Source: Pascua guehoae
Lineage: Eukaryota > Basidiomycota > Tremellomycetes > Trichosporonales > Trichosporonaceae
Direction: 5' to 3'
Length of the DNA: 64,000 bases
Assembly: GCA_001600415.1 (NCBI GenBank)
Contig: BCJX01000009.1
Span: 62,001 to 126,000 of the forward strand
Every line of letters begins with the position of its first letter. The first letter of the stretch is position 1. Positions 22,288 to 25,719 of this stretch are shown piece by piece. The position numbers were made by a program, and so were the translations under genes. The notes beneath the pieces were generated by a model that made no database searches, was not told the DNA's origin, and saw nothing but the letters and a program-made list of their open reading frames with translations.

Positions 22288-23136
22288 ATGTCCAAGAAGG
22301 TCTACACCACCGAAGAGAAGCGCCGTGCCATTGAGCAGTTCCACGAAAAGATCCACTACAGCTCTCGGTACAGTGGTACGTGAACCCACACGACCCGTCA
22401 GAGTTTTGCCCTAGCTGACCTCGTGTGTTTGTATCAACAGACGACGATTGGGAGTATCGGTGAGTCCTTTGATGGCCCCTGAGGCTTGAGACGCTGTTAC
22501 TGACCTGTCTCAGTCATGTCATTGTGCGTTTCATTCCAAGCGCGGCGGGTGCACCTGCACCCCAGGCGACCACTAGGCGACGTAGCTAACACGCAGCTCC
22601 CCAAGCAGCTCGTCAAGTTTGTCCCCTCTGGTGTCCTCGCCGAAGAGGTATGGCGCGGCCTCGGTATCCGCCAGTCACCCGGATGGGAGATGTACATGCG
22701 TCACGAACCTGTGAGTTGTTGGTTGTTGGGGTCGTGTTGTTGGTGTTTGTCCCGGCGCGTGCATGCGGGTGCCACAACCCTGGCTTGTTTGGCCACATCC
22801 AGCCAGTGCGAGGACAGTGTAATGGCCAGTGGGCCACACACCAGACGCGATTGTTTTCTTTTGTCTTTGTTTGGCACCAAAGCACAGGCGCCATTTTACC
22901 ATCTTGGTACACAGACCCCTTTCCCTACCCCTGTCCTGACACTTCTCGGATGGCAACATGGCTGACACCCAACAGGAACCGGTACATACCCTTTCCCCAC
23001 TTTAACCCACCCATCCACTGACATGACTTCCCAGCACGTTCTCCTCTTCCGCCGGCCAAAGAACTACGACCAGCTCCACCCCCCTCTGGGCGGCTCGATG
23101 GCCGCGCTCCGCGGTGTCAACGGTCTCCGGGCCTAG
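22288..23136 (+). CDS. CKS1: Cyclin-dependent kinase regulatory subunit Cks1/Suc1
   Basis: Six exons: 22288-22375, 22441-22459 (19 nt), 22514-22523 (10 nt), 22597-22710, 22976-22981 (6 nt), 23035-23136; 112 aa. Introns are 65, 54, 73, 265 and 53 nt. The spliced protein has all Cks landmarks: IHYSSRYSDDDWEYRHVILPK, SGVLAEEVWRGLGIRQSPGW, the hinge HEPEPH and VLLFRRPKNYD. Exon 3 supplies only His-Val-Ile of the invariant RHVxLPK. Exon 5 (GAACCG) supplies only Glu-Pro of the hinge HxPEPH, and without it the invariant motif is broken. Cks proteins bind Cdk1 and phosphothreonine sites and promote multisite phosphorylation and ubiquitination. The C-terminal tail PPLGGSMAALRGVNGLRA is a little longer than in animals. 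The leader before the ATG is C/A-rich and almost free of G. Confidence 0.93.
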
Positions 23137-23746: not shown

Positions 23747-25719
23747 CTAGAGGCCGCCAGTAATATCGTTGAGGAGGTTTTCCGCCTGCTGCTCGACACT
23801 CTCTTCGGGCGGCGGCGGGGGTGGCGGGGGCGCATTGCCATTTTCTCCGTCGCCTTCTGGTGCGGGAGGCGGCGACGGCGGGGGTGGTGGTGCGGGTCCG
23901 AGAAAGTCTTCCTCGGAACACGAGGCGACGAGAATGGTGCGTCCGCCAAACTGGCGTCCGCCGAGGGCCTTCATGGCCTTTGAGCAGCTCTCGACGTCGA
24001 CGTACATGACGTAGACGCGCCCGACGCCGTTTTCCTCGTCGAGCTTGCGGTTCTTTTCCGCCGTCTGCGCGGCGCTGTCCGACGGCTCCCACTTTGTGCT
24101 CTTGGGCACGGGGCGGGGGATGCGCACTCCCTCGACCTCACCATACTTGCCGCACTCGTCGCGAATGTCGTCGAGAATCTCGGCATAGTCGCGGTCGTCG
24201 TACAGCTCGTCGGGCGTCACCATGTTGAGCATGAGCATGACGCGCGACTCTGGGGCCTCGGCATCGGCCGACTCGAGAATCGACGACTGCGCAAGGAACG
24301 CCGCCGTGCCGGGTACATTTGGCGCCGATGCACCTGCGCGGCCCGTCGTCGCGGCACGCTGTACCACCAATGCACGGTCGCCGAGCGTGAACCCGTTCAG
24401 ACCCGTGATGGCCATGTCCGTCACCGAAGGGTCGAGGTACTCGACAAACGCAAAGCCCTTGGACACCGAGCCGTTGCCCTCCTTGACCAGGTTGAATGTG
24501 CGCAGCTCACCAAAGCTCTTGAGCAGCTCCATGACCTGGTCGCTCGACAGGTTGGTGGGCAGGCCACCGACAAAGAGCTTGTTGTTCGGGTCGCCCGTCT
24601 GGCCCATAAAGCCCAAGCTCGGGTCAATGCCCACATAGTCTTTGGGCCGCTGGACACGCAGCGAGACGTCGTCGAGCATTGTCCCGTCGAGCTGCATGGC
24701 CGCCGATGCCTCTTCGGCCGTCCGGAACTCGATAAACGTAAACTTCCTCCCCTCGTCAATCGACACTTGGGTCACGGGCTCGCCTTCCATGTCGGCCGCA
24801 ATCTTGTGCTGGTGCATGAGCTTGTTGAAAAAGTCTTGCAGCTGTTGCTCCGTCATGCTCTCGGTCACACCGCCAATGTACACTCGCCGGCTCTGGCGCA
24901 GTGGGTTGATCATGCCCGCGGCAAACGACGACGGTAGGCCGAGGTGCAGGGGCGGCGGTACACGTCCGGGTCCGTACGTGAACATTCCTGGCGGGTTAGC
25001 ATTGACTCGACCGCGCTCCAGACTCACCTGTCATTTTGGCCTCCATCGCACTGATGCCCTCAAACTGAGGCGGTGCAATGTCCCACAACGACGGCTCGAC
25101 ATGGCGCGCCTCGAGCGGCACCGCACCCGGTGGTGTGGGTGAGCGGCGCGGCGAGTCGCGCCTGCGTCCACCACGACCTCCGCCATGTCCCCCGCGCCCA
25201 CCGCCACCGCCTCCGCGCCAGTCGTCGCGCCCATAGTCTCCGCGGTCATAGTCCCTCCTCCGCGGCGACGCGTATGGGTCGCGATCCCGCTCGCTCCGTC
25301 CATACCGGTCGTCGCGGGGTTCGTCTCGCCTCCGCTCTGCGTACCGGTCACGATCGTCGCGTCCGTATGGGTCACGCTCCCGACCGCGGTCACGGCGACT
25401 CCGGTCGTAGTCGCGGTCATAGTCGCGGTCGCGATCGCGTCGCCCCCCGCGATCGTCCCGATCGCGGTACCGGTCCTCGCGGTCACGGTCGTGCCGCTTG
25501 TCGCCACGGTCATAGTCGTCGCGGCGGCTGCGGTGCCGGTCTAAGAAGTCGGGGTTAGTGGCTGCTAACAAGTGGGGTTTGGAGGGGTAGCTAACCTCCA
25601 TCATAGGTTTCCCTCGACTTGGCGTACGACGAGGCCGCGGCTTCGAGCGCGTCTGTGTGGTGTCAGCTAGACCGCGGGCAACAATACCATGGGTCCAACG
25701 CACCGTATCCAGTGTCCAT
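23747..25719 (-). CDS. U2AF2: Splicing factor U2AF large subunit
   Basis: Exons 25719-25704 (16 nt), 25652-25596, 25540-25028, 24987-23747; 608 aa. Introns are 51, 55 and 40 nt. Residues about 25-150 are an Arg/Asp/Ser-rich region (many RDRD, SRR and DRY repeats). SLWDIAPPQFEGISAM near 175 matches the conserved Trp motif that binds the U2AF small subunit. Then come RRM1 (RRVYIGGVTESMT, about 228-315), RRM2 (NKLFVGGLPTNLS, about 330-408) and the C-terminal UHM (RVMLMLNMVTPDEL...GRVYVMYVDVESC, about 443-556). The family recognises the 3' end of introns and binds SF1 and SF3b1. Unusually, the protein continues past the UHM with about 50 residues of polyproline and an acidic end ([20 protein letters not shown]). 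The first coding exon is only 16 nt. Confidence 0.92.

What the first reader, a model, noticed from the sequence alone, without database searches (positions are those of the whole stretch)
22976..22981. 6-nt microexon encodes the Glu-Pro of the Cks1 hinge
GAACCG is bounded by CAG and GTACAT and flanked by introns of 265 and 53 nt, each with a good CTGAC branch motif. Including it gives HEPEPHVLLF, the invariant Cks hinge; skipping it gives HEPHVLLF in frame. In Cks proteins the HxPEPH hinge governs the switch between monomer and strand-exchanged dimer. A two-codon exon exactly there could tune Cks1 conformation by splicing. It is also among the shortest coding exons I would expect in any fungus.
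Basis: partly seen in the sequence, partly recalled or inferred. Interest (0 to 1): 0.9.

Follow-up and report, generated by a model that had tools for sequence, protein, structure and literature searches.

The report
Six-base exon in Cks hinge
In this yeast the nearly universal Glu-Pro hinge of the cell-cycle protein Cks is encoded by six bases isolated between two likely introns, and 10 of 18 public protein models found for its relatives lack exactly those two residues, so the same tiny exon is probably shared and often missed.

Summary
GAACCG (22976-22981) lies between likely introns of 265 and 53 nt, each with a CTGAC 11-14 nt before its 3' splice site. It is the only way found to splice an H-x-P-E-P-H hinge (one solution; 0 of 2000 shuffles gave any). 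The gene is one of two deep Cks paralogs in a 33.6-Mb Trichosporonales-like genome. It also has 19- and 10-nt exons, again the only solution found.

The microexon looks old. Among 18 named Tremellales/Trichosporonales models of this paralog in our capped lists, 10 lack exactly Glu-Pro, 3 break at the same spot and 5 are intact. The other paralog keeps its hinge in 17 of 17 models of the class. The missing-EP label lies on the tree about as shuffled labels do. That points to frequent misannotation of a conserved, likely constitutive microexon.

Regulated skipping is not shown: no transcript was available. It is not excluded either: the intron-5 donor (GTACAT) is not among the genome's best, and AlphaFold2 closes an EP-less relative with a tighter turn. 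Exons of 1-6 nt are already known in fungi, so length is no record. New member of a known kind, in an unusually telling place.

The parts
22288..22375 (+). Cks gene exon 1, 88 nt, start codon, MSKK...RYS(D)
22376..22440 (+). intron 1, 65 nt, GTACGT...CTGAC...CAG
22441..22459 (+). exon 2, 19 nt (DDWEYR)
   Evidence: only splice solution found for YSDDDWEYRHVILPK
22460..22513 (+). intron 2, 54 nt
22514..22523 (+). exon 3, 10 nt (HVI)
   Evidence: the same stretch is garbled in the Vanrija models P0008 and P0009
22524..22596 (+). intron 3, 73 nt, CTAAC 8 nt before the 3' splice site
22597..22710 (+). exon 4, 114 nt, ends ...CAC GAA CCT (HEP)
22711..22975 (+). intron 4, 265 nt, GTGAGT, CTGAC 11 nt before the 3' splice site
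22976..22981 (+). exon 5, 6-nt microexon GAACCG = Glu-Pro of the hinge
   Evidence: only splice solution found, 0 of 2000 shuffles; comparative evidence
22982..23034 (+). intron 5, 53 nt, donor GTACAT, CTGAC 14 nt before the 3' splice site; retention gives a stop
23035..23136 (+). exon 6, 102 nt with stop TAG (HVLLFRRPKNYD...)

Best explanation
The six bases GAACCG at 22976-22981 are likely a constitutive microexon of a Cks gene, predicted to be joined to exons 4 and 6 by two successive intron-by-intron splicing steps so that the protein would carry the complete His-Glu-Pro-Glu-Pro-His hinge. Shown by sequence: the reading frame, the splice-site and branch motifs, and that no other splice choice tried gives the hinge. 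Shown by comparison: in the capped lists seen, 13 of 18 named Tremellales/Trichosporonales models of the same paralog lose exactly Glu-Pro (10) or break at that point (3). Inferred: six bases leave no room for both neighbouring splice complexes at once, so one intron is removed first and the other afterwards. Inferred: both flanking introns were present in the common ancestor of Tremellales and Trichosporonales, and the exon is kept because losing Glu-Pro removes the residue matching human Cks1 Glu63, which hydrogen-bonds the CDK, and shortens the hinge turn.
For: Only splice solution found; 0 of 2000 shuffles. CTGAC close to both 3' splice sites. In a 264-kb sample of the genome the five donor hexamers most enriched before CTRAC...YAG are all GTRNGT; intron 4 has GTGAGT. 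Of 204 proteins collected (tabulated in 36), 188 have H-x-P-E-P-H. Of the 16 that do not, 13 are named Tremellales/Trichosporonales models of this paralog, one (P0044, unnamed) runs on after HDP into V-S, as a GTRAGT donor would read, one is HAPEPW (P0023, unnamed) and one is a nematode (P0123). Papiliotrema P0015 has HDPEP and then V-R, as a GTRCGT donor would read. Seven Tremellales/Trichosporonales organisms are listed with both paralogs: type A lacks EP in 6 of 7, type B has HAPEPH in 7 of 7. EP-minus needs 4 changes on the tree against a shuffled mean of 4.4, unlike a single inherited loss. Three Vanrija species have two different hinge models (HEPH, HEPH, HEPFQH). Five of the 18 are modelled with EP, among them C. 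deneoformans JEC21 (P0005); RNA-seq of JEC21 has been mapped with a microexon search (PMC8022950, passage), but I did not trace P0005's model to it. The EP form scores 11.4 bits higher in Pfam CKS.
Against: No transcript data could be read. No relative's genomic DNA was available, so the microexon as such is seen in one genome only; P0015 alone would also fit a single intron after EP. The intron-5 donor GTACAT ranks 13th of 220 hexamers, enriched 1.86-fold against 3.1-8.8-fold for the top four, so inclusion may be inefficient. AlphaFold2 gives the EP-less Vanrija protein a confident closed fold, so skipping is not shown to be harmful. Ten of 18 models skip EP; how far RNA-seq informed them was not checked. 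On the tree, well-supported branches force only 2 of the 4 changes.
Confidence: 0.85

Rival explanations
1. Regulated microexon: inclusion makes a switchable hinge, skipping makes a hinge-shortened Cks that would be locked as a closed monomer or weakened in CDK binding.
For: Skipping is in frame. The intron-5 donor is not among the best. AlphaFold2 predicts a closed fold with a tight turn for an EP-less relative (strands 72-78 and 81-87, pLDDT 92 over residues 71-80) against a six-residue loop in an EP-containing one (strands 70-74 and 81-87, pLDDT 86 over 71-80). Cryptococcus deneoformans has CKS1 and CKS2 with different roles, each deletable (PMC8670703, passages), so a changed form could be tolerated.
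Against: No evidence of a skipped transcript. Missing EP in models fits annotation failure. The two folded proteins come from different species, and 31 of the 36 rows of each alignment contain EP, so the models are a weak test of the deletion.
Confidence: 0.1
2. EP was truly lost in the relatives that lack it, and the window's GAACCG is a decaying remnant that is no longer spliced in.
For: Ten of 18 models read HEPH or HDPH.
Against: Scattered distribution, congeneric models that disagree, five models with EP, a run-on model that retains EP (P0015), and good signals at the flanking introns in the window.
Confidence: 0.03
3. A genomic base error hides a longer exon or a different junction.
For: No read data were available to exclude it.
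Against: Only Glu-Pro is missing between exons 4 and 6, so no longer exon is needed; the enumeration gives one clean solution.
Confidence: 0.02

Closest known systems
5-6 bp exons set by cDNA in bglA genes of the basidiomycete yeasts Sirobasidium magnum and Rhodotorula minuta (PMC9142197, passages)
   Same: Tiny internal exons between short introns in intron-rich basidiomycete yeasts
   Different: Glycosidase genes; here a near-universal cell-cycle protein and its conformational hinge, with signs of the exon across two orders
6-bp exon and other microexons of Phanerochaete chrysosporium P450 genes (PMC1184071, passages)
   Same: Two-residue coding exons in a basidiomycete
   Different: P450 genes of one species
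1-nt exon of Fusarium CYP621A (PMC12940212, passages) and of Arabidopsis APC11 (PMC4674806, passages)
   Same: Ultra-small exon needed for the protein and missed by annotation
   Different: 1 nt, so skipping breaks the frame; here skipping stays in frame
Conserved, widely misannotated plant microexons (PMC8831610, abstract and section list)
   Same: Conserved microexons of 15 nt or less missing from gene models
   Different: Plants, backed by RNA-seq
Xlr2 microexon switch of Trichoderma virens (PMC11121469, abstract and passages)
   Same: Fungal microexon
   Different: There inclusion follows glucose and controls a DNA-binding domain; no regulation is shown here
Cryptococcus deneoformans CKS1 and CKS2 (PMC8670703, passages)
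   Same: Two Cks paralogs in a Tremellomycete
   Different: The word exon does not occur in its main text; which of the two matches this paralog was not settled

Membership tests
Cks family (PF01111) | CKS domain over the curated cut-off | tested here: met
   114.3 bits against a cut-off of 27, profile 1-68 of 68
[quoted passage not shown]
   HEPEPH if exon 5 is included; loop 75-80 in the model of relative P0003
Cks family (PF01111) | binds CDK and phospho-sites | not testable with these tools
   needs a bench assay
Conserved constitutive microexon | 15 nt or less between two GT-AG introns and needed for a conserved motif | tested here: met
   (sequence only)
Conserved constitutive microexon | same exon in relatives | tested here: inconclusive
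   Protein models imply it: 13 of 18 named models are broken at that point; no relative's DNA was available
Conserved constitutive microexon | included in mature mRNA | not testable with these tools
   no transcripts; 5 of 18 relatives' models include EP
Regulated microexon switch | condition-dependent inclusion and skipping | not testable with these tools
   no transcripts

The most novel reading that the evidence does not exclude
A splicing switch on a protein hinge, shared by two orders of yeasts: Tremellales and Trichosporonales vary inclusion of a two-codon exon to make two Cks forms, one with the full strand-swap hinge and one with a shortened turn locked closed, coupling splicing efficiency to CDK control.
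Probability: 0.1. Interest if true: 0.85.

Novelty: new member of a known kind. Interest (0 to 1): 0.5.

Why it matters
Cks is used across eukaryotes and its hinge is nearly invariant (188 of the 204 proteins collected), so models from these yeasts that lack Glu-Pro would mislead anyone who expresses, aligns or models them. If the exon is as old as the comparison suggests, a spliceosome working intron by intron has handled a 6-nt exon in a cell-cycle gene over the history of two orders, in frame, where any skipping could yield an altered protein rather than none. That makes it a clean natural test of how accurately fungi include tiny exons and of whether a two-residue hinge deletion is tolerated.

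Tried and rejected
Looked for relatives' DNA: the viral-contig scan with alignment A1 matched 13 stretches, none a Cks by tblastn. The bacterial/archaeal genome collection was not scanned, as fungi are not expected there.

Rejected a one-intron model or a longer hidden exon. Rejected rarity of the AG-6-nt-GT motif alone as evidence. Rejected 'true loss of EP in relatives' as the main reading. Considered the second Cks gene on contig C4 as a broken copy: it reads as an intact, deeply separate paralog. A crude scan of 264 kb of the genome, window included (2431 N), for intron-microexon-intron signatures gave 7 candidates of 27 nt or less, three of them in this gene. One other 6-nt candidate (L015) had no coding support checked and may be chance.

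I first took CKS1 to be the database name of the other paralog only; the listings use it for both types, so that argument was dropped. Searches compare two species' proteins (P0003 and P0001), because spliced or altered sequences may not be folded. Paper search for cks1 with microexon: 0 papers; microexon searches with fungi, Cryptococcus and basidiomycete are.

Full report
What is there. The window carries a Cks gene on the + strand with six exons of 88, 19, 10, 114, 6 and 102 nt. Exon 5 is GAACCG at 22976-22981. It sits between introns of 265 nt (GTGAGT...CTGAC, 11 nt before the 3' splice site) and 53 nt (GTACAT...CTGAC, 14 nt before it). The protein is 112 aa and scores 114.3 bits against Pfam CKS. 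Its closest solved relatives by sequence are S. cerevisiae Cks1 and S. pombe suc1 (species partly recalled from the entries).

Is it real? I enumerated GT/AG choices between exon 4 and exon 6 (first donor within 60 nt of 22696, introns of at least 35 nt, at most one internal exon of up to 60 nt). No one-intron solution exists, and 0 of 2000 dinucleotide shuffles of the stretch between gave any solution. The 19- and 10-nt exons are likewise the only solution found for YSDDDWEYRHVILPK. The bare motif AGGARCCNGT is not rare (2 found, 1.13 expected), so the strength lies in place, frame and flanking signals.

Which organism and which Cks. The genome has 33.6 Mb in 28 contigs. The best protein hits are Vanrija, Apiotrichum, Cutaneotrichosporon and Trichosporon. 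Vanrija is Trichosporonales; that order for the window is an inference from similarity. A second intact Cks lies on contig C4. It carries HAPEPH, and its hinge also falls on a small exon (18 nt, introns of 44 and 127 nt). A tree of 41 rows puts the window gene among its relatives (type A) and the C4 gene among another group (type B), the two groups split by a branch with support 100/100. C. deneoformans is known to have CKS1 and CKS2 with different phenotypes (PMC8670703, passages). Which of them is type A I could not settle: database names give CKS1 to rows of both types.

Is the microexon shared? I could not read relatives' DNA (one search found none), so I read their protein models as traces. 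I collected 204 proteins over three searches (each lists 120, out of 182, 2752 and 1938 hits). Of these, 188 have H-x-P-E-P-H and 16 do not. Among 18 named Tremellales/Trichosporonales type A models (P0001-P0017, P0117), 10 lack exactly Glu-Pro (P0001, 2, 7, 8, 10, 12, 13, 14, 16, 17). P0009 has Phe-Gln in its place. P0015 has HDPEP and then runs on into V-R. P0117 runs on after HDP. Five are intact (P0003, 4, 5, 6, 11). The unnamed P0044 runs on after HDP as V-S. V-S and V-R are what GTRAGT and GTRCGT donors read in phase 0, and the window's own intron 4 would also read V-S. The remaining two of the 16 are P0023 (unnamed, HAPEPW) and P0123 (a nematode). Orders of Vanrija, Papiliotrema, Dioszegia and Cryptotrichosporon were looked up; those of the other genera among the 18 are recalled. 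Each row is a cluster at 90% identity and may stand for several sequences.

Controls. Type B models of the same class keep HAPEPH in 17 of 17 (P0150-P0162, P0165, P0168, P0170, P0179), although three of them (P0161, P0165, P0168) run off just after His-Ile, where the C4 gene has an intron. In seven Tremellales/Trichosporonales organisms listed with both paralogs, type A lacks EP in 6 of 7 (Kockovaella has it) and type B keeps HAPEPH in 7 of 7. With the hinge cut out, the EP-minus label on the type A tree (10 minus, 5 plus, 3 outgroup rows; P0009, P0015, P0117, P0044 and P0023 left out) needs 4 changes, against a shuffled mean of 4.4 (241 of 500 shuffles as low); well-supported branches alone force 2, and the tool warns of long branches among the outgroup rows and P0016. 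A heritable loss should cluster; annotation failure need not. Models of Naganishia, Filobasidium and Mrakia on the type A side of the tree have intact hinges (P0121, P0122, P0124), so the flanking introns may date to the ancestor of Tremellales and Trichosporonales; that is a guess from three models.

How it likely works. Fungal introns are thought to be recognised one by one across the intron (general knowledge). Six bases cannot hold both neighbouring complexes, so the two introns must be removed in turn (inference). The intron-5 donor GTACAT is middling: in a 264-kb signature scan without annotation it is enriched 1.86-fold and ranks 13th of 220 hexamers, against 3.1-8.8-fold for GTGCGT, GTACGT, GTGAGT and GTAAGT. 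Retaining intron 5 gives a stop; skipping exon 5 keeps the frame. In human Cks1, Glu63 hydrogen-bonds the CDK, His60 and Pro62 are also listed in the CDK-binding region, and an open hinge prevents CDK2 binding (PMC3930463, passages). By the alignment ends (query 87 with human residue 72), exon 5 encodes the counterparts of Glu63 and Pro64, although in the repeat EPEP either pair could be called deleted. I therefore expect constitutive inclusion under strong protein constraint.

What skipping would do. AlphaFold2 on the EP-containing P0003 gives strands 70-74 and 81-87 with the hinge 75-80 as a loop. On the EP-less P0001 it gives strands 72-78 and 81-87 joined by a two-residue turn, with high confidence. 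By Foldseek both lie nearest to Cks1 entries 4lpa and 3qy2 (the P93A monomer mutant) and superpose on human Cks1 entries such as 1buh at about 1 A rmsd, while entries titled for the strand-exchanged dimer and the hinge switch rank lower. The two proteins are from different species and 31 of the 36 rows of each alignment contain EP, so this shows only that a closed EP-less fold is conceivable.

Against what is known. Tiny coding exons are documented in fungi: a 5-bp exon in S. magnum bglA and a 6-bp exon in R. minuta bglA, set by cDNA (PMC9142197, passages); a 6-bp exon in Phanerochaete P450 genes (PMC1184071, passages); a 1-nt exon in Fusarium (PMC12940212, passages). The Arabidopsis 1-nt-exon paper states that the smallest constitutive exon known before it was 6 nt (PMC4674806, passages). 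Misannotation of conserved microexons is established in plants (PMC8831610, abstract). Cryptococcus RNA-seq has been mapped with a microexon search (PMC3990503 and PMC8022950, one passage each). No paper of the held library has both cks1 and microexon. So the kind is known; this place, its in-frame skippability and the annotation scar were not found in print by that search.

Verdict. Observation confirmed; interpretation partly supported: a real, probably conserved, probably constitutive microexon. Regulation is untested.

Noticed in passing
L003 minus strand (G000 contig C4, 2127106-2129051): Second intact Cks paralog (98 aa in my model, last exon uncertain) whose HAPEPH hinge lies on an 18-nt exon, followed by a 20-nt exon; deeply separate from the window gene in the tree.
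   Followed up: yes
22441-22459 and 22514-22523: The same gene has 19-nt and 10-nt exons, the only splice solution found; two Vanrija protein models (P0008, P0009) garble the same stretch.
   Followed up: yes
Type B Cks models P0161, P0165, P0168: Three Tremellales models run off just after HAPEPH-Ile, where the C4 paralog has an intron, so faulty models can map introns without DNA.
   Followed up: partly
23747-25027, minus strand: Convergent neighbour ORF with an RRM domain (Pfam RRM_1, 108 bits) that looks like the splicing factor U2AF large subunit (recalled, not tested): a splicing gene beside the microexon gene, probably coincidence.
   Followed up: partly
18195 down to 18176, minus strand: Candidate 20-nt exon between two intron-like signatures in another gene.
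   Followed up: no
L021 around 795 and 6629 (+ strand), L015 around 3125 (minus strand): Further candidate microexons of 27, 18 and 6 nt elsewhere in the genome; coding support not checked.
   Followed up: no
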